DNA from: Sporichthya polymorpha DSM 43042
GTDB taxonomy: Bacteria > Actinomycetota > Actinomycetes > Sporichthyales > Sporichthyaceae
Direction: 5' to 3'
Length of the DNA stretch: 64,000 nucleotides
Assembly: GCF_000384115.1 (NCBI RefSeq)
Contig: NZ_KB913029.1
Coordinates: 4,067,057-4,131,056 of the forward strand
Shown here: positions 10,358 to 40,896 of the stretch, one piece after another
How the letters are laid out: each line of letters begins with the position of its first letter
Numbering within the stretch: the first letter of the stretch is position 1
The notes under the pieces: generated by a model
The model's database searches: none
What the model saw: only the letters and a program-made list of their open reading frames with translations
What the model was told of the DNA's origin: nothing
Position numbers and translations under genes: made by a program

Positions 10358-10486
10358 CGCTGCCCGATTCGCCCGAATTGCCGGGCTCAGGATCATCCGT
10401 ACGGCCACGGTTGGGCGGTTCGTGCTGCGCCGACCGGGGCGGAAGCGGGACGCTTTGCCTCCTGGACTCATCTGGTGGGGGGAAGC

Positions 10487-11536
10487 GTGCGGATCGGGGT
10501 AGCCGGCGTCGGACGCATCGGTGCGTTGCACGCCCAGAATCTGGTCGCCGCGATCGGCGCGGCGAACGTCGTGATCGCCGACGCCGACCCCGCGCGCGCC
10601 CGCGCGACCGCGGCCGGCCTCGGTGTCGCGACCGCCGCTGACGTCGAGACCCTTCTCGCCGCCCGGGTCGACGGTTTGGTCGTCGCGACGCCGACCGACA
10701 CGCACGCCGCGCTGGTGCTGCGCGCGGTCGCGGCCGGGATCCCGGTGTTCTGCGAGAAGCCGGTCGCCCCGGACATCGCCTCGACCCGGGCCGTGCTCGC
10801 GCAGGTGCAGGCGGCGGGCGGGCTCGTGCAGGTCGGGTTCCAGCGCCGGTTCGACCCCGGTTACGTGGCGGCGCACGAGGCCGTCGCGTCCGGCGTGCTC
10901 GGGCCGGTCCACACGATCGTCGGGCAGACGCTCGACCCGTCGCCCCCGCCCGCGGCCTACGTCGCGGTCTCCGGCGGCATCTTCCGGGACTGCCTGGTGC
11001 ACGACCTCGACATCCTGCGCTGGGTCACCGGGCAGGAGGCGGTCGAGGTCTACGCGACCGGCGCGAACCTCGGCGACGACTACATCCGCGCCGCCGGCGA
11101 CGTCGACGCCGTCGCGGTGACGCTGACGATGACCGACGGCTCGCTCGCGATGCTCTCGGCCAGCCGGTACAACCGTGCCGGGTACGACGTCCGCATGGAG
11201 GTCCGTGGGCACCGCGACTCGGTGGCCGTCGGCCTGGAGCCGCGGACGCCGATCCGGTCGATGGAGCCGATGACCTACCCGTCGGAGCCCGCGTTCCCAG
11301 GGTTCCTGGAGCGCTTCGGCGCCGCCTACGCCGCGGAGATGGCGGCATTCGTCTCGCTCGTCCGCAGCGGGGGAGCGAGCCGGTGCACCGTCGCGGACGC
11401 GCTGGCCGCGTTCGTCCTCGCCGAGGCGTGCGAGATCTCCCGTCGGGAGCGTCGGCCGGTGGCCGTTGCCGACATCGAGGCGGCCGGGGTCCTGCCCGGC
11501 CAGCAGGGTCGCGTCAGTCTGGAAGGTGTGGCATGA
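10487..11536 (+). CDS. iolG: Inositol 2-dehydrogenase-like oxidoreductase
   Basis: A 349-aa Gfo/Idh/MocA-family dehydrogenase that, by context, oxidises myo-inositol to scyllo-inosose. The Rossmann fold begins at once (RIGVAGVGRIGALHAQN), followed by the EKPVA lysine motif and the GIFRDCLVHDLDILRW block containing the catalytic Asp and His. The GTG at 10487 is chosen for its GGGGGAAG Shine-Dalgarno and because translation then starts directly at the Rossmann strand. It heads the iolG-E-C-B-D run and its stop overlaps the next gene (ATGA). Other cyclitols are possible substrates. Confidence 0.88.
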   Translation: MRIGVAGVGRIGALHAQNLVAAIGAANVVIADADPARARATAAGLGVATAADVETLLAARVDGLVVATPTDTHAALVLRAVAAGIPVFCEKPVAPDIASTRAVLAQVQAAGGLVQVGFQRRFDPGYVAAHEAVASGVLGPVHTIVGQTLDPSPPPAAYVAVSGGIFRDCLVHDLDILRWVTGQEAVEVYATGANLGDDYIRAAGDVDAVAVTLTMTDGSLAMLSASRYNRAGYDVRMEVRGHRDSVAVGLEPRTPIRSMEPMTYPSEPAFPGFLERFGAAYAAEMAAFVSLVRSGGASRCTVADALAAFVLAEACEISRRERRPVAVADIEAAGVLPGQQGRVSLEGVA

Positions 11537-12447
11537 CCGCTCCGTGGATCCACCGGCTGGCGGGGGCCCCGATCTCCTGGGGTGTCTGCGAGGTGCCGGG
11601 CTGGGGACATCAGCTCCCGGCCGACCTCGTCCTCTCCGAGATGGCAGCGGCCGGTCTGCGCGCGGCGGAGTTCGGCCCGGACGGCTTTTTGCCTGACGGT
11701 GGCTCAGAACGCGCTGCGGTGCTGCACCGGTTCGGCATGAGCGCGGTGGGCGGGTTCGTCCCCGTCGTCGTGCACGCCGGCGAGGTCGAGGCGGCGGACT
11801 TCGACCCGCTGTTCGGCGCGTTCACCGAGGCCGGTGCCGGGGTCGTCGTGTTCGCCGCCGTCAGCGGGCAGGACGGGTACGACTCCCGCCCCGAGCTCGA
11901 CGACGACGCGTGGACGCTGCTCTGCATGAACCTCGACCGGCTCGCCGAGCGCGCCGCGGCGTTCGGCCTCGTCGGCACGCTGCACCCGCACGTCGGCACG
12001 CTGGTCGAGCGGCCGCAGGAGATCGACCGCGTTCTGCTCGGCGCGACGATCGGTCTGTGCCTCGACACCGGCCACTGCCTGGCCGGCGGCGGTGACCCGC
12101 TCGCCCTGGCGAAGGTCGCGACGCGGCGGATCCGCCACGTGCACCTGAAGGACGTCGACGCCGCCCTGGCCGCGCGCGTCCGTACCGGGGAGCTCACCTA
12201 CACCGAGGCCGTGGCCGCGGGGATGTACCGCCCGCTCGGCGCCGGCGACGCCCGGGTGGCCGACATCGTCGCGACGCTCGAGGCCGGCGGTTACAGCGGC
12301 TGGTACGTCCTCGAGCAGGACCGCATCCTGCCCGCGCCCCGCGGCGGCGAGGCCGATCCGATGGACGCCAACCTGCACGCGGCCGCGGCGATCCGCGCCG
12401 ACGTCGACGCCAGCCTCGCCCACCTGCGGGCTGCCCTGCCGGTGTGA
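11533..12447 (+). CDS. iolE: Inosose dehydratase-like TIM-barrel protein
   Basis: A 304-aa sugar-phosphate isomerase/epimerase-type TIM barrel. In this operon position it should be the IolE-type 2-keto-myo-inositol dehydratase or the related IolH. Characteristic strand ends are APISWGVCE, GTLHPHVGT, LCLDTGHC and HVHLKDVD, which supply the metal-binding Glu, Asp and His residues. The ATG overlaps the iolG stop. The following gene starts 10 bp after its stop. IolE and IolH cannot be separated with certainty from the sequence alone. Confidence 0.8.
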   Translation: MTAPWIHRLAGAPISWGVCEVPGWGHQLPADLVLSEMAAAGLRAAEFGPDGFLPDGGSERAAVLHRFGMSAVGGFVPVVVHAGEVEAADFDPLFGAFTEAGAGVVVFAAVSGQDGYDSRPELDDDAWTLLCMNLDRLAERAAAFGLVGTLHPHVGTLVERPQEIDRVLLGATIGLCLDTGHCLAGGGDPLALAKVATRRIRHVHLKDVDAALAARVRTGELTYTEAVAAGMYRPLGAGDARVADIVATLEAGGYSGWYVLEQDRILPAPRGGEADPMDANLHAAAAIRADVDASLAHLRAALPV

Positions 12448-12457
12448 GTGCGTCGCG

Positions 12458-13402
12458 ATGAGCATGCCTGCAGAGGTTCTGACGATCGGTCGGCTCGGCG
12501 TCGACGTCTACCCGCAGCAGGTGGGCGTCGGGCTGGAGGACGTCACGAGCTTCGGCAAGTACCTCGGCGGGAGCGCGGCCAACGTCGCGGTCGCGGCGGC
12601 CCGGCACGGCCGGCGGGCGGCGCTGGTCAGCGGCGTGGGTGACGACCCGTTCGGTCGCTTCCTGCGTCGCGCGCTCGCGGGCTTCGGGGTCGCGGACGAC
12701 CACGTCGCGACCGTCCCCGGCGGCCGGACGCCGGTGACCTTCTGCGAGATGTTCCCGCCGGACGACTTCCCGCTGTACTTCTACCGGGACGACGCTCCGG
12801 ACCTGCAGATCTCGGCCGACGACGCGATGCTCGCTGCGGTGCGCAGCGCGGCCCTGTGCTGGACGACCGTGACCGGCCTGTCCCGTGAGCCGAGCCGCGC
12901 CACGACGCTGGCGGCCCTGGCGGCGCGGGAACGCCGCGGGCACACCGTCCTCGACCTCGACTGGCGTCCGATGTTCTGGCCCTCGCCCGAGGAGGCGTAT
13001 CCGTGGATCCGCGCCGCGCTGGCGCGCTCGACCGTCGCGATCGGCAACCTCGACGAGTGTGAGGTCGCGACGGGGGAGCGCAACCCGCGCGCGGCGGCCG
13101 AGGAACTGCGCGAGGCCGGGGTCCGTATCGCGGTCGTGAAGATGGGCCCCGCCGGGGTGCTCGGGCTCGACGACGACGGCTTCGTCGAGGTCCCGCCGTA
13201 CCGGGTCGACGTGCTCAACGGCCTCGGTGCCGGCGACGCGTTCGGCGGGGCGTTCTGCCACGGCCTGCTCGCCGGATGGTCGCTGGAGCGGATCCTGCAC
13301 TTCGCGAACGTCGCCGGGGCGCTGGTGGCGGCCCAGATCGCGTGCTCCGACGCGATGCCGACCACCGCGGAGGTCGAGGCTCACCTGGCGGCCCGCTCGT
13401 GA
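12458..13402 (+). CDS. iolC: 5-dehydro-2-deoxygluconokinase IolC
   Basis: A 314-aa PfkB/ribokinase-family kinase that phosphorylates 5-dehydro-2-deoxy-gluconate in inositol breakdown. The sugar-binding GGSAANVAVAAARHG motif lies at about 41-55, and the NGLGAGDAFGGAF anion hole carries the catalytic Asp260. Typical IolC features are the FYRDDAPD segment and a DLDWRPMFW loop. It ends in a GTGA overlap with iolB. It is of the short, kinase-only type without the C-terminal DUF2090 domain seen in fused forms. Confidence 0.92.
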   Translation: MSMPAEVLTIGRLGVDVYPQQVGVGLEDVTSFGKYLGGSAANVAVAAARHGRRAALVSGVGDDPFGRFLRRALAGFGVADDHVATVPGGRTPVTFCEMFPPDDFPLYFYRDDAPDLQISADDAMLAAVRSAALCWTTVTGLSREPSRATTLAALAARERRGHTVLDLDWRPMFWPSPEEAYPWIRAALARSTVAIGNLDECEVATGERNPRAAAEELREAGVRIAVVKMGPAGVLGLDDDGFVEVPPYRVDVLNGLGAGDAFGGAFCHGLLAGWSLERILHFANVAGALVAAQIACSDAMPTTAEVEAHLAARS

Positions 13403-14268
13403 ACCTGCACCTGCCGGCCGGCTCGACGGCGACCCACCCCTGGGCCCTCGAGATCCCTTCCGGGCGTCCGGAGTGGACGCACACTTCGCTCCGGATCCTC
13501 GACCTGCCCCCGGGCGGCTCGCACCGGTGGGAGACCGGGGACGAGGAGGCGGTCGTCCTTCCGCTCGCCGGCTCGGGGACCGTCGGCTGCGACGGGGAGA
13601 GCTTTGAACTGACAGGGCGTCAGAGCGTGTTCGAGCGCGTCAGCGACCTGGCGTACGTGCCGCGGGACTCCGCGGTGTCGGTGTACTCGATCCGGGGCGG
13701 CCGGTTCGCGGTCGCCGGAGCGCGGTGCGAGCGCCGCCTGGCCCCGGCCTACCTGCCCGCCGAGAGCGTCCCCGTCGAGGTCCGCGGGGCCGGCAGTGCG
13801 ACGCGGCAGGTCAACAACTTCGGCGTCCCCGGGGTGCTGGAGGCCGACCGACTCATTGCGTGCGAGGTCCTCACGCCCGGTGGGAACTGGTCCTCGTTCC
13901 CGCCCCACAAGCACGACTGCGAGCGGCCGGGCCTGGAGTCCGAGCTCGAGGAGATCTACTACTTCGAGCTCTCCCGACCGGGTTTGGCGTATCACCGCGT
14001 CTACGGCACCGCGGACCGTCCGATCGACGTCCTCGCCGAGGTCCGCGACGGCGACGTCGTCCTCGTCCCGCACGGGTGGCACGGCCCGTCGATCGCCGCG
14101 CCCGGCGTCGACCTGTACTACCTGAACGTCATGGCCGGCCCGGGCCCCGAGCGCGCCTGGCGAATCTGCGACGACCCCGCCCACACCTGGGTCCGCGGCA
14201 CCTGGCTGTCGCAGGAGTGCGACCCGCGGGTCCCGATGACCTCCGCCGCCGGGCGGATCACCCACTAA
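13399..14268 (+). CDS. iolB: 5-deoxy-glucuronate isomerase IolB
   Basis: A 289-aa bicupin that isomerises 5-deoxy-glucuronate to 5-dehydro-2-deoxy-gluconate. The metal site is visible as the FPPHKHDCERPG motif (His170, His172) followed by ELEEIYYFEL with the Glu ligand and VPHGWHGP with a later His. The GTG start overlaps the iolC TGA. Length is at the usual family value. A 42-bp palindrome sits between its stop and iolD, the only sizeable gap in the iolG-D block. Confidence 0.92.
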   Translation: MNLHLPAGSTATHPWALEIPSGRPEWTHTSLRILDLPPGGSHRWETGDEEAVVLPLAGSGTVGCDGESFELTGRQSVFERVSDLAYVPRDSAVSVYSIRGGRFAVAGARCERRLAPAYLPAESVPVEVRGAGSATRQVNNFGVPGVLEADRLIACEVLTPGGNWSSFPPHKHDCERPGLESELEEIYYFELSRPGLAYHRVYGTADRPIDVLAEVRDGDVVLVPHGWHGPSIAAPGVDLYYLNVMAGPGPERAWRICDDPAHTWVRGTWLSQECDPRVPMTSAAGRITH

Positions 14269-14310
14269 CGTCCGACGATGTGGCTGCTATTGCAACCACA
14301 TCTTCGGACG
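14269..14310. repeat. Palindromic repeat family C, copy 1
   Basis: A 42-bp stem-loop directly after the iolB stop: CGTCCGACGATGTGG (14269-14283) pairs with CCACATCTTCGGACG (14296-14310) with one mismatch, around a loop containing GCTATTGCA. A second copy with the same loop core lies at 49683-49732. Being inside an operon, it may act on mRNA stability or partial termination before iolD. Confidence 0.7.
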
Positions 14311-14329
14311 CAAGGAAAGGTAAGACGGC

Positions 14330-16210
14330 ATGCGGCTGACGGTGGCCCAGGCGCTGGTGCGATTCCTCGCGGTCCAGTACTCCGAGCGGGACGGGACGCG
14401 GCAGCGGCTGATCCCCGGCTGCTTCGGGATCTTCGGCCACGGCAACGTCGCCGGCGTCGGGCAGGCGCTGCTGGAGAACGCGGCCCAGGCGCCGACGACC
14501 GGCGAGCCGGTGCTGCCGTACCACCTCGCGCGCAACGAGCAGGCGATGGTCCACGCGGCGTGCGGCTACGCGCGCATGCGCGACCGGCTGCAGACGCTCG
14601 CGTGCACCACGAGCATCGGCCCGGGCGCGACGAACATGGTCACCGGCGCCGCCCTCGCGACGATCAACCGGCTCCCGGTCCTGCTGCTCCCCGGCGACGT
14701 CTTCGCCACCCGCGCGGCCGGTGCACTGCTGCAGGAGCTCGAGCGGCCCGGCGAGCCCGGGACGAGTGTCAACGACGCCTTCCGGCCGGTGAGCCGGTTC
14801 TTCGCGCGCATCGAGCGGCCGGAGCAGCTGCCGCAGGCGCTGCTCGGTGCGATGCGCACGCTGACCGACCCGGCCGAGACCGGCGCCGTCACCCTCGCGC
14901 TGCCGCAGGACGTGCAGGCCGAGGCCTACGACTGGCCCGACGAGCTGTTCGCCGAGCGCACGTGGCTGGTCCCGCGTCCGGCGCCGGACACGACCGCGCT
15001 CGCCCGCGCCGCCGAGCTCCTGCGCGGCGCCCGGCGACCGCTGGTCGTCGCGGGCGGTGGCGTGACGTACGCGGCCGCGGAGTCGGCGCTGCGTTCGTTC
15101 GCCGAGGCGACCGGCATCCCCGTCGCGGACACCCACGCCGGCAAGGGGACGCTGCCGTTCGACCACGCGCTGAGCGCGGGACCGCTGGGCGCCACCGGCA
15201 CCCCGGTCGCGAACTCGCTCGCCGCCGAGGCGGACGTCGTGCTCGGCGTCGGCACCCGGTGGAGCGATTTCACGACCGGTTCCCGCACGGTGTTCGGGCC
15301 GGCGACCCGATTCGTGAACCTCAACGTCGCGGCCTTCGACTCCGCGAAGCACGGCGCGCTGATGCTGACCGCCGACGCCCGCGCCGGGCTGGAGGCCCTC
15401 ACCGCGGCGCTCGCCGGCCACCGCGCGCCCGCGGAGTGGACCGCCCGGCTCGACCGCGCCCGCGCCACGTGGACGCCGGTCGCCGACGCCGCGCTCACCG
15501 GGAACGGGGGATCAGCCCCGGTGCAGACGGCCGTGCTCGGCGCCGTGAACGAGGCTCTGAACGCCCGGAGCGGGACGATGGTCGCGGCCGCCGGCAGCAT
15601 GCCCGGCCAGCTCCAGATGCTGTGGCGCGCCCGGACGCCGAAGGGCTACCACGTCGAGTACGGGTACTCCTGCATGGGCTACGAGATCGCCGGCGCGCTC
15701 GGGGTGAAGATGGCGGCCCCGGAGCGGGACGTCGTCGCCCTGGTCGGCGACGGCTCGTATCTGATGATGAGTCAGGAGATCGTCACCGCGGTCTCGGAAC
15801 GCATTCCGCTCACGGTCGTCCTCGTCGACAACGCCGGCTTCGGTTCGATCGGCGCGCTCTCGGAGTCCCTCGGCAGTCAGCGGTTCGGCACCGCCTACCG
15901 CTATCGCAACCCGGCGTCCGGACGGCTCGACGGCGACCACCTGCCGGTCGACCTCGCCACCAACGCCGCGAGCCTCGGCGCGGAGGTGTTCGGTCCGAAG
16001 ACCCTCGACGAGTTCCGCGCGGACCTCGACAAGGCTCTCGCCTCACCGGCCGTCAGCGTCGTCTACGTCCAGGTCGACCCGCTCGCGCCGGCCCCGTCCT
16101 CGGGCTGCTGGTGGGACGTCCCCGTCGCCGAGGTCTCCGCGCTGGAGAGCACCCAGGCCGCCCGGTCCGCCTACGAGGGCGCGAAGAAGGCCCAGCGCCC
16201 CCTGCTCTGA
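14330..16210 (+). CDS. iolD: 3D-(3,5/4)-trihydroxycyclohexane-1,2-dione hydrolase IolD
   Basis: A 626-aa thiamine-diphosphate enzyme that opens the ring of the inositol catabolite. The cofactor-activating glutamate is Glu70 (LARNEQAMVHAACGYA), and the ThDP/Mg motif starts GDGSYLMMSQEI at residue 473 and ends at the VLVDN asparagine 501. The three-domain layout and length match IolD. The start ATG has an AAGGAAAGG Shine-Dalgarno just after the family-C palindrome. Convergent exported-protein genes follow beyond the family-B repeats. Confidence 0.95.
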   Translation: MRLTVAQALVRFLAVQYSERDGTRQRLIPGCFGIFGHGNVAGVGQALLENAAQAPTTGEPVLPYHLARNEQAMVHAACGYARMRDRLQTLACTTSIGPGATNMVTGAALATINRLPVLLLPGDVFATRAAGALLQELERPGEPGTSVNDAFRPVSRFFARIERPEQLPQALLGAMRTLTDPAETGAVTLALPQDVQAEAYDWPDELFAERTWLVPRPAPDTTALARAAELLRGARRPLVVAGGGVTYAAAESALRSFAEATGIPVADTHAGKGTLPFDHALSAGPLGATGTPVANSLAAEADVVLGVGTRWSDFTTGSRTVFGPATRFVNLNVAAFDSAKHGALMLTADARAGLEALTAALAGHRAPAEWTARLDRARATWTPVADAALTGNGGSAPVQTAVLGAVNEALNARSGTMVAAAGSMPGQLQMLWRARTPKGYHVEYGYSCMGYEIAGALGVKMAAPERDVVALVGDGSYLMMSQEIVTAVSERIPLTVVLVDNAGFGSIGALSESLGSQRFGTAYRYRNPASGRLDGDHLPVDLATNAASLGAEVFGPKTLDEFRADLDKALASPAVSVVYVQVDPLAPAPSSGCWWDVPVAEVSALESTQAARSAYEGAKKAQRPLL

Positions 16211-16213
16211 GCC

Positions 16214-16320
16214 GTCAAGAAAGGGTGTCACCCTTTTTCGACGCGGCCGGATGTCAAGAAAGGGTGTCACCCTTTCTTGACCACTCCCGCGTTCGAAAAG
16301 GGTGTCACCCCTTGTTGAAC
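16214..16320. repeat. Palindromic repeat family B, three tandem units
   Basis: Three palindromes in a row between the convergent iolD and exported-protein genes. Unit 2 (16253-16281) has perfect 14-bp arms, GTCAAGAAAGGGTG and CACCCTTTCTTGAC. Units 1 (16214-16242) and 3 (16291-16320) are degenerate versions with the same AAGGGTGTCACCC core. Unit spacing is about 38 bp. Related elements recur at 31676 and 40839. Bidirectional termination is plausible, but no T-tract is present. Confidence 0.75.
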
Positions 16321-16332
16321 GGGGGGACGGCG

Positions 16333-17787
16333 CTACTGGGTCTTGTACAGGGCGGCGGTGAGGGTCGCGGCGACGGTGCCGTTCGGCCGGCTGAGGGTGA
16401 TCGTCACGTCGTCCTTCCAGTCCGCGTTGCCGGGGTGCATGTACCGGAAGGTGACGGAGCTGGCGCCGGTCGCGGGGATCGTGTGCGTGAGCGGGTTGCC
16501 GGCCCGGCCTTCGACGGTGAAGTCGCCCGTGCCCTGGCCCTTGGTCTTGACGGCGACGAAGGTGAGCGACCAACCGGTGCCTGGGTTCGCGGCGGGGTTG
16601 CCGTAGGCGTCGGTGAGCGCGATAGTGCCCTCGATGCCGCCCTCGTTGCCCAGCTGGAACGCGGAGCAGTTCTGCCCGGCGCAGTTGACGAGTCCGGTCC
16701 CGGGGACGACGGAGGAGATCCCGGCCCAGGCGGCGGAGGTCGGCAGGCCACCCCCGACGGTGATCCGCAGCGCGCTCGGGGTGGTGATGCCGCCGGTGGT
16801 CGCCCGCAGCATCGCGGTCTCGGCCTTCACCAGCGTCAGGGCGACGTTGGTCGCGACGCCGCCCGTGAAGGTCGCGGTCGTGGACGCGGTCGGGGTGGCC
16901 CCGTTGGCCGCGGTGCCGGCGCCGGACCAGGTCAGCACCCGGCTGCCGGTGTGCCCGGTGGCGAGGTTGCCGTACGCGTCGGTCGCGGTGACCTTGGCGA
17001 GCGTGTACGTGACGCCGGCCTGCGCCGTCGCCGGCCCGGTGAGGGCGTAGGTCGCCGCGCTCGCGGGAGCGACGGGAAACGACGAGCTCGAGCCGGAGCG
17101 GCCCTCGCTCACGACGGTCAGCACCGTCGGCGCGGCGTTGGTCAGCACGACCGAGACCGTCGCCCGGCCGGCGGAGAAGGTGGCGGTGACCGGGTAGGTC
17201 GGCGCGGTGCCATTGGGGCTGTCCGCGGCGCCGGTGATCAGCAGGTTCCTGGTTCCGTTGTAGAGCAGGTCCCGCAGGCCGGCGGTGGTGGCGGTCAGTT
17301 CCAGCGTCGTGCTCGATCCGGCCGTCGCGGGGGACACCGCGACGGTCAGGGCCCGGTCGACGACCGGGACGAAGATGCTCGTCGTCGGCGCGTTCGCGGG
17401 CAGCGCCGTCCACGGGCCGGCGACGGCGAAGACGCGGTAGGTGTTGGTCGCCAGCACCGACGGGTCGTTGTCGAGGCAGGTCCCGACGCCGGCGGAGTCC
17501 GCGGTGATCGTGCAGACGCCCGACTTCGCCGACGGCGACGTGCGGTCGACGCGGTAGGAGGTGGGGACCGGCCCGGACCCGGGAGCGGTCACCGCGATGC
17601 GGACCTCGCCCCCGCTGAGGCTGGCTTGGACCGACGGCGAGCCGATCACGTCGGCGCGCGCGGAGCCGTTCACGTCGGAGGACGTGACGGTCCAGAACCC
17701 GTACGCCGCCGTCGGCCCGAGGACCGCGGCCGCGAGCGCCAGCGGCACGAGGTAGCGGGAACGCCGCCGTGGCATGCGCAGAGTCAC
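16333..17787 (-). CDS. Large exported Ig-like protein, SipW/TasA-type N-terminus
   Basis: A 484-aa exported protein, last gene of a four-gene minus-strand operon. After RRRSRYLVPLALAAAVLGP comes AAYGFWTVTSS, the aromatic [AY]-x-W motif seen after the signal segment in all but one of these proteins and typical of SipW-processed substrates such as TasA and camelysin. The remainder is Thr/Ala/Gly-rich beta sequence with at least three Ig-like stretches (for example TDAYGNLATGHTG and the very similar TDAYGNPAANPG, which mark repeated domains). No sortase motif or C-terminal membrane anchor. The GTG at 17787 overlaps the upstream stop; an ATG four codons later is the alternative. Function unknown; a structural surface role is inferred. 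Confidence 0.8.
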   Translation of the reverse strand: MTLRMPRRRSRYLVPLALAAAVLGPTAAYGFWTVTSSDVNGSARADVIGSPSVQASLSGGEVRIAVTAPGSGPVPTSYRVDRTSPSAKSGVCTITADSAGVGTCLDNDPSVLATNTYRVFAVAGPWTALPANAPTTSIFVPVVDRALTVAVSPATAGSSTTLELTATTAGLRDLLYNGTRNLLITGAADSPNGTAPTYPVTATFSAGRATVSVVLTNAAPTVLTVVSEGRSGSSSSFPVAPASAATYALTGPATAQAGVTYTLAKVTATDAYGNLATGHTGSRVLTWSGAGTAANGATPTASTTATFTGGVATNVALTLVKAETAMLRATTGGITTPSALRITVGGGLPTSAAWAGISSVVPGTGLVNCAGQNCSAFQLGNEGGIEGTIALTDAYGNPAANPGTGWSLTFVAVKTKGQGTGDFTVEGRAGNPLTHTIPATGASSVTFRYMHPGNADWKDDVTITLSRPNGTVAATLTAALYKTQ

Positions 17788-18278
17788 GAGATCCGTCCGG
17801 TCACGGTGACGGGCACCGAGAAGTTTGCACCCTGGCACCCGTTGTCGGCCTGTCCCATGGTCACTGCGCCGGGAAGCGGAATCGAAACGCTCGCGCCCGG
17901 GGCGACCACGGTCGACAGCCCGGTCTGGGGCACGACGGTGACGGCGGGGTTGGTGCAGGTGCCGAGCGAGCCGCTGACGCCGACCGCGCCGGCGCCGGCG
18001 GTCACCGCGGTGACGGTGATCGGCATCGAGTTCGGGTTGCGCACGGCGAGCACCAGCGTGCCGACCGAACCCGGAGCCAGCGTGCCGGCGACGGAGGCCG
18101 TCGAGGCCACGCCGGTCAGCGGCGAGAGGTTGCCCGCGGTCGCGGAGCCGGTGCCTGAGCCGGTCGTTCGCCAGTACGCCTGCGCGACCCCGGTCGGGAG
18201 CGTGACGGCGCCGACGACGAGCGCGGCGGTCACCGCGGCTCGGCGGACGCGCGTCTTCGGCGCGGCGTGGCGGCTCAC
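17784..18278 (-). CDS. Small exported SipW/TasA-type protein
   Basis: A 164-aa exported protein, third in the minus-strand operon. A basic N-terminus and hydrophobic segment (residues 14-33) end in AQAYWRTTGSGTGSATAG, the camelysin/TasA-like motif also found in the operon's first gene. The mature part is a single beta-rich domain with two cysteines, Cys108 and Cys148, at positions matching those in its two upstream neighbours. It ends without an anchor. Start and stop overlap the flanking genes as GTGA, so translation is coupled. I infer a secreted or polymerising surface subunit; no function is established. Confidence 0.8.
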   Translation of the reverse strand: MSRHAAPKTRVRRAAVTAALVVGAVTLPTGVAQAYWRTTGSGTGSATAGNLSPLTGVASTASVAGTLAPGSVGTLVLAVRNPNSMPITVTAVTAGAGAVGVSGSLGTCTNPAVTVVPQTGLSTVVAPGASVSIPLPGAVTMGQADNGCQGANFSVPVTVTGRIS

Positions 18279-19081
18279 GAGGCCCGCCCGGTGGCGCCGT
18301 AGGTGAAGCGCAGCGCGGCGTTCTTGCAGCCGTCCTGGTTCACCGGGGTGTTGAGCATGCGGACCCGCGGCCACTGCGCGGCGGGAATCCCGAGCTCGGA
18401 CAGCGTCCGGGTGGTGCCGGCCGGCAGCGTCAGCGTCGGGCCGGTGTACGGCGTGACGTCGAAGTCCGCGACGGTGCACACCAGGCGGCCGGTCGCGTTC
18501 GGGGCGGCCGCGATGGCGAGGTCCACGCCGAGCGCCTCGACGGCGAGGTCGGTCGCGTTGTTGTTCGTCAGCTCGACGTCGATGGGCGCGGTGATGCCGG
18601 GGCGCAGGGTCGTCGCCGGCAGGCCGGTCAGCGTGAGCGGAAGGCCGGGCGCCGCGGAGGCGGCGGGGCGCAGCGTCAGGCGGACGGTGGTACCCGCGAC
18701 GGCGTCGTTCCCGGTGGCGCGCACGACGATGTCGTAGTCGCCGGCCGGGGTGAACTTCTCGTCGACGGTGACGACGAGCGTGGAGCTGACGCCGCTGGTG
18801 GTCGCCGGCGTGAACTGCGCCGAGGCGAACGGCGGGAGCGCGGCCGCGGTGAAGGTCACCGGGCCCACCTCCGAACCACGCAGCAGCGTGAGGGCGTACT
18901 CGGCGGACCGCTGGTCCCCGAGGACGACCGCCCCCGGCTCGACCGCGATCCGCAGCGGCGGCGCCGCGGCACCGGTCGCCAGCGAGGCGAGGAACGCGAA
19001 CACGCCGGTGAGGAGCAACGCGAGCAGACCGAGAAGAACGGCTCCGCGGCGTCGGCGCCGCTCCTCCGTCTGCTCGGTCAT
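18275..19081 (-). CDS. Membrane-anchored beta-rich protein of the exported operon
   Basis: A 268-aa protein with a charged N-terminus (TEEQ-type, then RRRRR), one hydrophobic segment at about 13-36, and an extracytoplasmic part made of two beta domains. It lacks the AYxxW motif, so it probably stays anchored. Its C-terminal domain nevertheless matches the small secreted neighbours: CTVADFDV at Cys202 and NQDGCK at Cys252. This suggests it is the membrane base of whatever the others form. The ATG at 19081 follows a GAGGGGAA Shine-Dalgarno; a GTG ten codons earlier is possible. It overlaps the downstream gene. Confidence 0.78.
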   Translation of the reverse strand: MTEQTEERRRRRGAVLLGLLALLLTGVFAFLASLATGAAAPPLRIAVEPGAVVLGDQRSAEYALTLLRGSEVGPVTFTAAALPPFASAQFTPATTSGVSSTLVVTVDEKFTPAGDYDIVVRATGNDAVAGTTVRLTLRPAASAAPGLPLTLTGLPATTLRPGITAPIDVELTNNNATDLAVEALGVDLAIAAAPNATGRLVCTVADFDVTPYTGPTLTLPAGTTRTLSELGIPAAQWPRVRMLNTPVNQDGCKNAALRFTYGATGRAS

Positions 19082-19151
19082 CGCGTTCCCCTCGGTCCCC
19101 GTGGTGTTCACTTCGGCGGTGTCGGTCCGGACCTGACGCCCGGGCGTGCGA

Positions 19152-19179
19152 GGGCCGGCGGAACTCGCTCCGCCGGCCC
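19152..19179 (-). terminator. Hairpin between the first and second exported genes
   Basis: GGGCCGGCGGA (19152-19162) pairs perfectly with TCCGCCGGCCC (19169-19179) around a 6-base loop, just downstream of the first gene of the exported operon. Such an intercistronic stem could raise the level of the first transcript relative to the rest, which would suit a major subunit. Role inferred. Confidence 0.55.
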
Positions 19180-19189
19180 GGGTCGATCC

Positions 19190-19654
19190 TTAGTTGGACG
19201 TGAAGGCCAGGGTGACCGTCGCGCCCTTGCAGTTGTCCTGGTTCGCGTTGGTGTTCTTGAGCATCACGACGGCGGTGCCCGTCTGGCTCGAGTTCCCAGC
19301 GATCTGACCGGCGGCGATGGCGACCTGGTCGACTTGGTAGTCCGCGACGGTGCACGCCGGGCCGCTGCCGTTGCCGGTGGTCGTGCCCGCGACCGAGGCG
19401 GTGACGCCGGTGAGGTACTGAGCGAAGTTGGCGCCGTTGTTCACCTTGAAGTTCACGGTCTGCGGGACTCCGGGGACGAGACCGGTGACGTTGCCCACCT
19501 GGGTGATCGTGAAGGCGGTGTTGGTGCCGGCGGCGCCGGTCGCGGAGCCCTCACCGGAAGTGGTCCAGTAGGCGTACGCGCCACCCGCACCGGCGATCGC
19601 AACAGCGGCGACGGCGACGACAACAGCGGCCTTCTTCTTGGTGACGATGCGCAT
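19190..19654 (-). CDS. Exported SipW/TasA-type protein, probable major subunit
   Basis: A 154-aa protein encoded first in the minus-strand operon. MRIVTKKKAA is followed by a hydrophobic segment and AYAYWTTSGEGSATG (residues 26-40), a textbook SipW-type/camelysin N-terminus. The mature domain is Thr/Asn/Ala-rich beta sequence with only two cysteines: Cys101 in CTVADYQV and Cys142 in NANQDNCKG, probably a disulfide. It is the smallest product, first in the operon, and separated from the rest by a hairpin, features expected of an abundant fibre subunit. The ATG follows AAAGGGGAC. No dedicated signal peptidase lies in the window, so processing would depend on an enzyme elsewhere. Confidence 0.82.
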   Translation of the reverse strand: MRIVTKKKAAVVVAVAAVAIAGAGGAYAYWTTSGEGSATGAAGTNTAFTITQVGNVTGLVPGVPQTVNFKVNNGANFAQYLTGVTASVAGTTTGNGSGPACTVADYQVDQVAIAAGQIAGNSSQTGTAVVMLKNTNANQDNCKGATVTLAFTSN

Positions 19655-19911
19655 CTCGGGAGTCCCCTTTGAGTTCGTGTTTCGCAGGTGCTCCCTGCGG
19701 GCGCCCGCTCCGTGCGGGCTGACACCAACTTCGACGAAAGGGGCCCATCGGGTGACGAGACCAAAGTCCCGAAACCGGGCAACCAAAGACACCAAGCCAA
19801 GGAGGACCTAAGTACGAACGGGTCGGCCCGAACCGGTCGGGGGAATGGAGCACGGCGGGCGGTCCCGGGCCCCGATACTGGTGATCCACTTCGAACTCCC
19901 GTGGAGGCCCG
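19655..19911. promoter_or_regulatory. Divergent leader between exported operon and iolA
   Basis: This 257-bp gap must hold the promoters of the exported operon (minus) and of iolA (plus). It is less GC-biased around 19770-19815 and contains three similar ACCAAAG-like words (around 19770, 19792 and 19801) plus a hairpin-prone GCCCGCTCCGTGCGGGC stretch near 19707-19723 on the exported operon's leader. I cannot place -10 and -35 boxes with confidence. Confidence 0.4.
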
Positions 19912-21396
19912 GTGCGCGAGATCGGCCATTGGATCGGTGGCGCCCAGACGCCCGGGGCCTCGGGCCGCCGGGGTCCGGTGTTCCAGCCGGCGACGGGGGA
20001 GATCCAGGCCTCGGTCGCGCTTGCGGACCCCGCCGAGGCCGACGCGGCCGTCCAGGCGGCGGTCAAGGCCGCCGACGGCTGGCGGGAGACGTCCCTGGTC
20101 GCGCGGGCGCGCATCCTGTTCGCGTTCCGGGAGCTGCTGCACCGCAATCTCGACGCCGTCGCCGAGGCGATCACCGACGAGCACGGCAAGACCCTCGCCG
20201 ACGCCCGGGGCGAGGTGACGCGCGGCCTCGAGGTCGTCGAGTTCGCCTGCGGGATCCCGCACCTGCTCAAGGGCGAGTACTCCGACCAGGTCTCGACCAA
20301 CGTCGACGCGTACTCGTTCCGCCAGCCCCTCGGCGTCTGCGCCGGGATCACGCCGTTCAACTTCCCGGCGATGGTCCCGCTGTGGATGCACCCGATCGCG
20401 ATCGCGGCCGGCAACACGTTCGTCCTCAAGCCCAGCGAGCGGGATCCGTCGGCGTCGATGCTCGTCGCGAAGCTCTACGCCGAGGCCGGACTGCCGGCGG
20501 GCGTGTTCAACGTCGTCCACGGCGACAAGACCGCGGTCGACGCCCTGCTCGACCACCCGGACGTCGCGGCGGTCTCCTTCGTCGGCTCGACGCCGGTCGC
20601 CCGGTACGTGCACGGCCGGGCGAGCGCGGCGGGCAAGCGCGTGCAGGCCCTCGGCGGGGCCAAGAACCACGCTGTGGTGCTGCCCGACGCCGACCTCGAC
20701 AACGCCGCCGCCGAGCTCACCGCCGCCGGGTACGGGTCGGCCGGCCAGCGCTGCATGGCGATCTCGGTCGTCGTCGCGGTGGGCGACGCCGCCGACGGGC
20801 TCGTCGAGCGCCTCGCCGCCCGCGCGTCCGCGATCGCGGTCGGTCCCGGCCGGGCCGCGGGCTCCGAGATGGGCCCGCTGGTGACCGCCGAGGCCGCCGA
20901 TCGCGTCCGCGGGTACGTGGAACGCACCGACGCCCGGGTCGTCGTCGACGGCCGCGCCGTGGTCGTCCCGGGGCACGAGAGCGGCTTCTGGGTCGGCCCC
21001 ACACTGCTCGACGGCGTCAGCCCGGCCAGCGAGGCGTACGCGGACGAGATCTTCGGCCCGGTGCTCTCGGTCGTCCGGGTGGGGAGCTTCGAGGAGGCGG
21101 TCGCGCTGGTCAACGCGAACCCGTACGGCAACGGCGTCGCGATCTTCACCGGCAGCGGGGCGGCGGCCCGGCGGTTCACCCGTGAGGTCTCGGTCGGGAT
21201 GGTCGGGGTCAACGTGCCGATCCCGGTGCCGATGGCGTTCTACAGCTTCGGCGGCTGGAAGGACTCGCTGTTCGGCGACACCCACGTGCACGGAGCGGAG
21301 GGGGTCCGGTTCTACACACGGGCCAAGGCGGTGACCAGCCGGTGGCCGGAGAGCGCCGCCTCCGACGCTGCGTTGCACTTCCCGACCGCGCGTTAG
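19912..21396 (+). CDS. iolA: Methylmalonate-semialdehyde dehydrogenase (acylating)
   Basis: A 494-aa CoA-dependent aldehyde dehydrogenase (IolA/MmsA) that turns malonate or methylmalonate semialdehyde into acetyl-CoA or propionyl-CoA, the last step of inositol and valine breakdown. The nucleophile is Cys281 in GSAGQRCMAIS; the ITPFNFPAMVPLWM substrate-tunnel motif and ALGGAKNH, in which the general-base Glu of ordinary aldehyde dehydrogenases is replaced, are diagnostic. The GTG start follows a GGAGGCCC Shine-Dalgarno. It belongs functionally to the iol block but is cut off from it by the exported operon, so it needs its own promoter. Confidence 0.93.
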   Translation: MREIGHWIGGAQTPGASGRRGPVFQPATGEIQASVALADPAEADAAVQAAVKAADGWRETSLVARARILFAFRELLHRNLDAVAEAITDEHGKTLADARGEVTRGLEVVEFACGIPHLLKGEYSDQVSTNVDAYSFRQPLGVCAGITPFNFPAMVPLWMHPIAIAAGNTFVLKPSERDPSASMLVAKLYAEAGLPAGVFNVVHGDKTAVDALLDHPDVAAVSFVGSTPVARYVHGRASAAGKRVQALGGAKNHAVVLPDADLDNAAAELTAAGYGSAGQRCMAISVVVAVGDAADGLVERLAARASAIAVGPGRAAGSEMGPLVTAEAADRVRGYVERTDARVVVDGRAVVVPGHESGFWVGPTLLDGVSPASEAYADEIFGPVLSVVRVGSFEEAVALVNANPYGNGVAIFTGSGAAARRFTREVSVGMVGVNVPIPVPMAFYSFGGWKDSLFGDTHVHGAEGVRFYTRAKAVTSRWPESAASDAALHFPTAR

Positions 21397-30479: not shown

Positions 30480-31690
30480 TGACCGGCGCCCCCACCACCG
30501 CCGAGCCCCCGACCGTGCCGACCGACCCCGCGCCCGCGTACCGCGTCCCCGCCGACTTCGTGCCGGCCGAGACCCGCACGATGGGCACCGTCCACAACGC
30601 CCTGCGACGCGACCTGCCGCGCGTCCGGGCCGTGCTCGACACCCTGCCGTACCCGCACGACCGTCAGCGCGTGGCGCTCGCCGACCACCTGCTGATGATG
30701 ATGGCGTTCCTGCACAAGCACCATTCCGCCGAGGAGATCGGGCTCTACCCGTTGGTCCGGCGCGACCCGGCGGCCGCCGCGCTGCTCGACGAGATGGAGG
30801 CCGACCACGACGCCCTCGACCCCGGCATCGCCGCGGTGGAGAGCGCCGCTCGGGCCTACCGGCTCGACGCGGCGGCGCGCGAGGCCGTGATCGCCGCCCT
30901 CGATCTGCTCAACCCGGTGCTGATGCCGCACCTGGACCGGGAGGAGCAACTCCTCATGCCGGTCGTCGAACGGACCGTCAGCAAGGCCGAGTGGGACGCC
31001 TGGGAGAAGGGCATCGCCAAGGGCCGCTCGCTGGGCGAGTTGGCCACCGAGGGGCACTGGATCCTCGACGGGGCGACCCCGGACGAGGTCGACCTGATGC
31101 TCGCCCTCGTCCCCGGGCCCATGCGCTGGATCCTGCTGAACGTCTCCGGCCGCGGCCACCGCAAGCGCGCCTTCGCTCGCTGGTGGACCCAGGAGTACTC
31201 CCCGTGGAAGGTCGCGTGCGGCGGCAGCAACAGCGTCACCGTCTCCGCGTCACCGGAGCAGGTGTGGGCCGTGCTGACCGACGTCACCCGCGTCGGTGAG
31301 TGGAGCCACGAGTGCCGCAGCGCCCGCTGGCTCGCCGGGTCCGGTGGCGTGGGTGCCCGCTTCGTCGGCGCGAATCAGGCGGCCTGGTCGCGCTGGAAGC
31401 GCCCCTGCGTCGTCACCGCCTGGGAGCCGGGCCGGCTCTTCGCGTTCCGCACCCAGGGCCCGCGGCTGGTTCGCGACTGCTCGGAGTGGACCTTCGCCCT
31501 CGAGCCCGTCCCCGGCGGGGGCACCCGCATCACGCAGACGTTCCGGATCCTGAGCCTGCCCGTCCCCGTCGAGCGGCTGATCTGGCTGACCCTGCCGCCG
31601 CACCGCATCGCACCGCCGCCCTCGCCGGCGACCTCGAGCGCCTCGGCGCCCTCGCCGCCCGCCGCCGCCACCCCTGTCAGAAAAGGGTGA
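30479..31690 (+). CDS. Hemerythrin-like / SRPBCC fusion protein
   Basis: A 403-aa fusion. The N-terminal half is a hemerythrin-like four-helix bundle with candidate iron ligands His39, His79/81/82, Glu85/86, His110, His151 and Glu155. From about residue 240 comes an SRPBCC (polyketide-cyclase/START-like) lipid-binding fold, starting SVTVSASPEQVWAVLTDV. The last 28 residues look out of frame: shifting by -1 near 31609 restores RTAALAGDLERLGALAA, the normal last helix of an SRPBCC domain. Both frames run into the family-B palindrome, which supplies the stop codon. Fusion of an oxygen/NO-sensing bundle to a hydrophobic-ligand pocket suggests redox or lipid sensing; substrate unknown. Confidence 0.78.
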   Translation: MTGAPTTAEPPTVPTDPAPAYRVPADFVPAETRTMGTVHNALRRDLPRVRAVLDTLPYPHDRQRVALADHLLMMMAFLHKHHSAEEIGLYPLVRRDPAAAALLDEMEADHDALDPGIAAVESAARAYRLDAAAREAVIAALDLLNPVLMPHLDREEQLLMPVVERTVSKAEWDAWEKGIAKGRSLGELATEGHWILDGATPDEVDLMLALVPGPMRWILLNVSGRGHRKRAFARWWTQEYSPWKVACGGSNSVTVSASPEQVWAVLTDVTRVGEWSHECRSARWLAGSGGVGARFVGANQAAWSRWKRPCVVTAWEPGRLFAFRTQGPRLVRDCSEWTFALEPVPGGGTRITQTFRILSLPVPVERLIWLTLPPHRIAPPPSPATSSASAPSPPAAATPVRKG

Positions 31691-31731
31691 CACCCCTTAC
31701 TGCGCAGTAAGGGGTGTCACCCTTTCTTGAC
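31676..31731. repeat. Palindromic repeat family B, long form
   Basis: A 56-bp near-perfect palindrome: two 28-bp arms meeting at ACTGC/GCAGT, identical except for one AG/GA swap. The core is AGGGTGACACCCCTT. It lies across the 3' end of the hemerythrin-SRPBCC gene and faces the convergent gene ending at 31762. The same long form, with the same centre, is at 40839-40896. Confidence 0.8.
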
Positions 31732-40838: not shown

Positions 40839-40896
40839 GTCAAGAAGGGGGTGACACCCCTTACTGCGCAGTAAGGGGTGTCACCCCTTGTTGTCC
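40839..40896. repeat. Palindromic repeat family B, long form, copy 3
   Basis: Two 29-bp arms meeting at ACTGC/GCAGT, with a perfect core GGGGTGACACCCCTTACTGC pairing over at least 20 bp; outer parts are more divergent. It lies between two minus-strand genes, just upstream of the VOC gene start and after the DUF456 gene. A TTGTCCACA word overlaps its right end. Confidence 0.78.

What the first reader, a model, noticed from the sequence alone, without database searches (positions are those of the whole stretch)
16333..19654. Four-gene operon of SipW/TasA-type exported proteins
Three of four products carry the AY-x-W-type motif (AYAYWTTSG, AQAYWRTTG, AAYGFWTVT) that follows the signal segment in camelysin and TasA. 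The three smaller ones share a two-cysteine pattern (CTVADYQV/NQDNCK, CTVADFDV/NQDGCK, and C108/C148). One stays membrane-anchored, one is small and first in the operon behind a hairpin, and one is a large multi-domain protein. This looks like major subunit, linker, anchor and tip of an extracellular fibre or surface layer. Such systems are well described in Bacillus (TasA) but, to my knowledge, not in this arrangement in actinomycetes. No signal peptidase or sortase is adjacent.
Basis: partly seen in the sequence, partly recalled or inferred. Interest (0 to 1): 0.8.

Follow-up and report, generated by a model that had tools for sequence, protein, structure and literature searches.

The report
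Four-gene actinobacterial surface-fibre operon (predicted)
A soil-type actinobacterium carries a compact four-gene cassette, found scattered through its whole phylum and matched by no family in the public libraries searched, that looks like a kit for building a cell-surface fibre or complex: a repeated small subunit, an anchor, an adaptor and a variable tip.

Summary
Four genes (A 154 aa, B 268, C 164, D about 484) lie on the minus strand at 16333-19654. A, C and D share an A-x-A-x-[W/F] motif right after the signal. A, B and C share a homologous two-cysteine domain. The cassette recurs, mostly as A-B-C-D, in many Actinomycetota; the own genome has a second copy whose B ends in LPGTG.

Two patterns support the fibre reading. 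(1) The post-signal segment (W-x3-G-x-G-x-G-x-A) is in A, C and D, but a profile of it fits none of 35 B proteins; the A-type domain is in A, B and C, but not D. In a donor-strand model A and C are middle subunits, B an acceptor-only anchor, D a donor-only tip. (2) B-C-D are translationally coupled, while A is set off by a gap often holding a long hairpin, as expected for an over-produced major subunit.

The SipW part is not supported: 8 of 21 cassette-bearing genomes show no SipW-type peptidase, whereas all 17 genomes with true camelysins do. A is only a distant relative of TasA/camelysin. Polymerisation itself is not shown.

The parts
19190..19654 (-). Gene A, 154 aa: signal, post-signal strand segment, Ig-like beta-sandwich with C101/C142; proposed major subunit
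   Evidence: A26, A28, G34, P61, G62, N73, C101, Q139, D140, C142 invariant in 23; pLDDT 77; domain 44-154 well predicted, 22-40 disordered
19526..19579 (-). A residues 26-43, AYAYWTTSGEGSATGAAG: AxA site plus proposed donor segment (W, then small residues at +4, +6, +8, +10)
19152..19179 (-). Hairpin GGGCCGGCGGA-GCGAGT-TCCGCCGGCCC between A and B (11 perfect pairs, no T run)
   Evidence: in the centroid structure; whole-gap z-score 0.33; 0 of 100 shuffles give as long a stem; 16 of 35 homologous gaps significant; upstream of A 0 of 25
18275..19081 (-). Gene B, 268 aa: N-terminal TM helix, Ig-like domain (about 41-139), C-terminal A-type domain (about 148-267, C202/C252); proposed anchor
   Evidence: (pLDDT 89.6)
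17784..18278 (-). Gene C, 164 aa: signal, post-signal segment, A-type domain (C108/C148); proposed adaptor or initiator
18132..18185 (-). C residues 32-49, AQAYWRTTGSGTGSATAG: AxA site plus post-signal segment
16333..17787 (-). Gene D, about 484 aa: signal, post-signal segment, fn3-like first domain, further predicted Ig-like domains; proposed tip
   Evidence: C-terminal modules of homologues differ
17653..17706 (-). D residues 24-41 (ATG numbering), AYGFWTVTSSDVNGSARA: post-signal segment

Best explanation
The operon encodes a sortase-independent, multi-part cell-surface fibre of an undescribed actinobacterial type. All four products leave by Sec. A is made in excess, is cut by a type I signal peptidase at AxA, and polymerises when the freed aromatic-plus-glycine N-terminal segment of one subunit completes the Ig-like domain of the next (donor-strand exchange, as in TasA). 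C, built like A but made at lower level with B and D, is an adaptor or initiator. B holds the fibre to the cell by its TM helix (by LPXTG in other copies) and offers an A-type acceptor domain but no donor segment. D carries a donor segment but no A-type domain and ends the fibre with exchangeable binding modules: an adhesive tip. Shown: genes, homologies, motif and domain distribution, anchors, coupling, hairpin, conservation. Inferred: disulfides, stoichiometry, strand exchange, polymerisation, adhesion.
For: Conserved operon: at least 17 further loci in order A-B-C-D, two as A-C-D-B, several without C. Mantel tests show correlated divergence of all gene pairs (p 0.001-0.04). Donor-like segment in A, C, D and not B; A-type domain in A, B, C and not D. 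B anchors by TM or LPXTG. D modules differ: Big_13, Laminin_G_3, CHB_HEX_C, beta-propeller. A-B gap 19-126 nt with significant perfect stems in 16 of 35 against 0 of 25 upstream of A; most B-C, C-D and B-D junctions overlap by 1-4 nt or are 1-4 nt apart. A aligns with actinobacterial camelysins over 70 columns that include the aromatic and the PG turn; in TasA these are F29 and P62 at the protomer interface (PMC10151520). In the A model residues 22-40 do not fold back on the domain.
Against: No complex was modelled and no experiment exists. Low confidence at A 22-40 fits a plain flexible linker equally. Fold matches of A are weak (best Z 7.4; TasA fibre 8aur_A E 0.025, TM 0.39). TasA interface residues Q232 and F200 have no tested counterpart in A. 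Some cassettes lack C or B (L035 has A and D only). The hairpin is not significant in about half of the gaps. The segment profile finds only 17 of 32 D.
Confidence: 0.5

Rival explanations
1. A non-polymeric cell-surface complex: the four proteins form a fixed hetero-oligomer that displays D, in the manner of the Csc/WxL clusters of low-GC Gram-positives; the N-terminal segment is only a cleavage site and linker.
For: Four secreted proteins with Ig-like domains, one TM or LPXTG anchor and one large variable protein; csc clusters are described just so (PMC1534035). Foldseek lists WxLIP among weak A matches (E 0.02). No polymer evidence.
Against: No WxL or other Pfam family above cut-off in the window proteins. 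It does not predict why the W/G segment is absent from B alone, why A and C duplicate the B domain, or the A-B gap with hairpin.
Confidence: 0.3
2. A SipW-dependent TasA/camelysin biofilm matrix system.
For: PF12389 E 7e-4 for A, 7 of 23 A homologues at E 0.01 or better; hhalign E 5e-7 with actinobacterial camelysins. One locus (L052, Nocardioides halotolerans) has a SipW-family gene just upstream of A. SipW presence is enriched among cassette genomes (13/21 against 78/276, p 0.002).
Against: A is below the PF12389 cut-off and no SipW signal model hits it. Of 21 cassette genomes 8 show no SipW-type peptidase, five of them at least 96% complete, while 17 of 17 true-camelysin genomes have one. 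Own SipW sits 3.2 Mb away beside its own candidate substrates.
Confidence: 0.12
3. A sortase-assembled pilus.
For: LPXTG-type signal at the C-terminus of B in the paralogue L011 and in L032, L033, L040, L071, L072; seven sortase-family genes in the genome.
Against: A, C and D carry no LPXTG in the window; B in the window has none; no sortase adjacent (nearest about 0.4 Mb). Only the anchor B, not the repeating subunit, carries LPXTG elsewhere.
Confidence: 0.04
4. An S-layer-like coat of A, B, C and D.
For: Ig-like domains; the first Ig domain of B resembles Sap S-layer domains among many other Ig folds (Z 9.7).
Against: Small subunits, patchy distribution (21 of 297 and 13 of 296 genomes), anchored B, no SLH domain found.
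Confidence: 0.04

Closest known systems
TasA/TapA of Bacillus subtilis and TasA/CalY/CapP of B. cereus (camelysin family, PF12389)
   Same: Small secreted beta-sandwich proteins with an aromatic residue just after the cleavage site and a conserved PG; A is alignable over the N-terminal half. Fibres by N-terminal donor strand, sortase-independent (PMC9674648, PMC10151520, PMC13082335).
   Different: A lacks the camelysin C-terminal half and has a two-cysteine NQDxCK domain; below the PF12389 cut-off; no SipW in the operon; dedicated anchor B and multidomain tip D; anchor or tip absent from tasA operons.
Csc/WxL surface clusters (DUF916-DUF3324, WxL) of lactic acid bacteria
   Same: Operon of exclusively surface proteins with Ig-like domains, one anchored, one large and variable.
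   Different: No WxL domain or DUF916/DUF3324 match; three members built on one homologous two-cysteine domain; W/G segment.
Chaperone-usher pili (type 1, Caf1)
   Same: Proposed logic: middle subunits both donate and accept a strand, end subunits do only one.
   Different: Gram-negative, with chaperone and usher; no sequence relation. PapD-like similarity of the B Ig domain (Z 9-10) is a common Ig-fold match.
SipW-camelysin pairs of actinomycetes (e.g. L081, L082, L084)
   Same: Same class of bacteria; W/F motif, PG turn.
   Different: Always found with a SipW-type peptidase in the genome (17/17), often next door; no B or D; own cysteine pattern.

Membership tests
Camelysin/TasA (PF12389) | Score over the curated cut-off (22.5 bits) | tested here: not met
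   A 19.9 bits, E 7e-4; 7 of 23 homologues at E 0.01 or better, best E is that of the window A; no match in own genome at E 0.001
Camelysin/TasA (PF12389) | Profile-level homology | tested here: inconclusive
   hhalign with 12 actinobacterial camelysin-type proteins: probability 92.5, E 5e-7, only 70 columns of the N-terminal half
Camelysin/TasA (PF12389) | Jelly-roll fold of TasA | tested here: inconclusive
   Foldseek 8aur_A rank 9, E 0.025, TM 0.39/0.28; not among the VIA rows shown
Camelysin/TasA (PF12389) | Proline box of the protomer interface (F29, P62, Q232, F200) | tested here: inconclusive
   Aromatic at mature +2 (W30) and P61-G62 conserved and aligned; no counterpart of Q232 or F200 identified
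Camelysin/TasA (PF12389) | Fibre by N-terminal donor strand | not testable with these tools
   No complex prediction or experiment
SipW-dependent export | SipW-type signal model (TIGR04088) hit | tested here: not met
   No hit for the window proteins at E 1; 1 of 23 A homologues at E 0.004
SipW-dependent export | SipW-type peptidase in the operon or always in the genome | tested here: not met
   Not in the operon; 13 of 21 cassette genomes have one; one locus of about 36 has it adjacent (L052)
Sortase-assembled pili | LPXTG on the repeating subunit and an adjacent pilin sortase | tested here: not met
   Sequences; sortases all distant
WxL/Csc clusters | WxL and DUF916/DUF3324 domains | tested here: not met
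   No Pfam hit at E 1 in any window protein

The most novel reading that the evidence does not exclude
A new class of Gram-positive surface fibre in Actinomycetota in which the position of each subunit is written by which half of a donor-strand pair it carries: acceptor-only anchor B, two-way A and C, donor-only tip D with swappable adhesive modules, exported without SipW and assembled without sortase or chaperone.
Probability: 0.3. Interest if true: 0.78.

Novelty: new variant of a known kind. Interest (0 to 1): 0.55.

Why it matters
Apart from sortase pili, type IV pili, chaplins and ESX-type systems (own knowledge), few fibre systems are known in Actinomycetota. If right, this cassette gives soil actinomycetes (Nocardioides, Kribbella, Arthrobacter, Amycolatopsis and others) a self-assembling adhesive fibre with exchangeable tips, and would make testable whether donor-strand fibres arose once, in the TasA lineage, and spread through Gram-positive bacteria. 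The anchor/tip logic makes sharp predictions about each protein. No Pfam or NCBIfam family covers these proteins above cut-off, so they are likely to be annotated as hypothetical.

Tried and rejected
First query alignment for the genome scan was too diverse; a tighter one gave 28 loci. Coordinates out of frame once. PDB sequence searches with A, B and D gave nothing meaningful. VIA-align of A: top Z 7.4, a range in which unrelated Ig-like domains tie, so no fold family is claimed; TasA is not among the rows shown, which excludes nothing. PDB search with an L058 camelysin gave noise. Whole-gap fold energy between A and B is not unusual (z 0.33); only the perfect stem is. A hairpin upstream of A was tested and rejected (0 of 25). 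Sigma-70 promoter and intrinsic terminator scans: nothing. Conserved neighbours as partners: none recurrent except a LigD polymerase-domain gene at five loci, judged incidental. Apparent LPXTG in D of L057 and L058 judged spurious by position. My hand count of 14 cassette genomes with SipW was corrected to 13 by script. Literature searches found no description of the cassette; only open-access papers are covered.
Full report
WHAT IS THERE. On the minus strand of the window four genes follow each other: A (19190-19654), B (18275-19081), C (17784-18278) and D (16333-17787). B-C and C-D overlap as GTGA, so they are translationally coupled; A is separated from B by 108 nt with a perfect 11-pair hairpin at 19152-19179. 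Against the sister species G002, which has the same operon at the same place, all four are under purifying selection (dN/dS A 0.49, B 0.24, C 0.34, D 0.24).

MOTIFS AND HOMOLOGY. A, C and D carry A-x-A-x-[WFY] after the hydrophobic signal; B does not. Over homologues: A 34/34, C 22/22, D 31/32 (the exception has L in place of the aromatic). For B a strict window gives 1 of 33, by eye spurious, and a looser one 7 of 35, so the better test is a profile of the 14 residues from the aromatic on, trained on A only: it exceeds the 99th percentile of shuffles in 20 of 22 C, 17 of 32 D and 0 of 35 B. The segment reads W-T-T-x-G-x-G-x-G-x-A, that is, an aromatic followed by small residues in every second position. 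A, C and the B C-terminal domain are homologous (hhalign E 1e-22 and 4e-20) with two invariant cysteines each. D has an fn3-like first domain instead.

CONSERVATION. In the same genome a second operon at C1:2782569-2785072 (L011) has the same order; its B ends in LPGTG-TM-RR and its D in a PT-rich stalk. One scan of 84,980 genomes gave 28 loci (Nocardioides, Kribbella, Arthrobacter, Amycolatopsis, Promicromonospora, Solirubrobacteraceae and Conexibacter MAGs, one Chloroflexi MAG that may be misbinned). With the relatives, at least 17 loci have A-B-C-D, two have A-C-D-B, several lack C. By even sampling 21 of 297 genomes of the class and 13 of 296 of the phylum have an A protein: patchy but broad. 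Divergence of all gene pairs is correlated (Mantel p 0.001-0.04), so the cassette travels as a unit. At the window site the cassette interrupts an inositol-catabolism cluster between iolD and an iolA-like dehydrogenase; in G004 the two genes are directly adjacent, in G001 and G003 the gap holds other genes.

STRUCTURE. A model: pLDDT 77, an Ig-like sandwich (44-154), signal helix, and residues 22-40 disordered. B model: pLDDT 89.6, helix 3-35, an Ig-like domain that matches many Ig folds (sialidase Ig-like domain Z 11, PapD-type chaperones Z 9-10), and the A-type domain. Fold matches of A are weak; the TasA fibre is among them at E 0.025, TM 0.39. The fold alone therefore decides nothing.

RELATION TO TASA AND SIPW. 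A scores 19.9 bits with PF12389, below the cut-off. Against twelve camelysin-type proteins of actinomycetes hhalign gives probability 92.5, E 5e-7 over 70 columns of the N-terminal half, starting after most of the signal. These columns include W30 and P61-G62. In TasA filaments the aromatic F29 and P62 meet at the protomer interface and are the best conserved part of camelysins (PMC10151520), and residues 28-38 are the donor strand (PMC9674648). The C-terminal halves differ. SipW: true camelysins coexist with a SipW-type peptidase in 17 of 17 genomes; cassette genomes in 13 of 21 (background 78 of 276); five of the eight without are at least 96% complete. One locus, L052, has a SipW-family gene just upstream of A. 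Export of the cassette by ordinary type I signal peptidase is thus the simpler reading; three weak TIGR02228 hits in tandem at C1:3785747-3787953 may be ordinary LepB-type genes.

HOW IT MOST LIKELY WORKS. Shown: who carries the post-signal segment, who carries the A-type domain, who is anchored, who varies. A and C have both segment and domain; B has the domain but no segment and is anchored by a TM helix or LPXTG; D has the segment but not the domain, and its C-terminal modules change between species: Big_13 Ig repeats, Laminin_G_3 lectin-like, chitobiase-type, beta-propeller. Inferred: a donor-strand fibre running from anchor B through A (and C) to tip D. The A-B gap holds a perfect stem that no more than 2% of shuffles match in 16 of 35 loci, with unrelated sequences, against 0 of 25 upstream of A; by analogy with intercistronic hairpins that protect upstream mRNA (established knowledge, e.g. 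pilin and REP elements) this would raise A over B-C-D. The disulfides, the strand exchange, the stoichiometry and adhesion are not tested.

RIVALS. A fixed surface complex like the Csc/WxL clusters (PMC1534035) explains secretion, anchor and variable display but not the segment distribution or the A-B gap; it remains possible. SipW-dependent TasA matrix, sortase pilus and S-layer fit less well.

VERDICT. It is a new variant of a known kind (Gram-positive beta-sandwich surface assemblies), with a sharp, testable subunit logic.

Noticed in passing
window 16220-16310, also 31682-31725 and 40849-40886: Palindromic repeat AAAGGGTG[T/A]CACCCTTT in intergenic stretches, three copies between iolD and gene D. 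The exact 14-mer AAAGGGTGTCACCC occurs 50 times in the genome, often in clusters of up to five, while the reversed control occurs 0 times.
   Followed up: partly
window 10475-21396: The operon lies, on the opposite strand, inside a myo-inositol catabolism cluster between iolD and an iolA/mmsA-like aldehyde dehydrogenase. In G004 the two are adjacent; in G001 and G003 the same gap holds other genes, so the junction looks like an insertion hotspot.
   Followed up: yes
L010 5682-7350 (own genome C1:849681-851349): A separate SipW-type operon: two W-motif proteins (the first over the PF12389 cut-off at 25.6 bits) followed by a SipW-type peptidase.
   Followed up: partly
L037, L039, L041, L046, L047: A LigD polymerase-domain-like gene neighbours the cassette at five loci. 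No reason known.
   Followed up: no
L052 4846-6969: A SipW-family peptidase with a C-terminal extension lies directly upstream of gene A, with a second similar stretch before it.
   Followed up: partly
L049, L054, L060 (e.g. L060 9470-11296): In Kribbella a further large secreted protein (about 600 aa) follows D.
   Followed up: no
L070: A and B are found on a contig labelled Chloroflexi MAG; transfer or misbinning.
   Followed up: no
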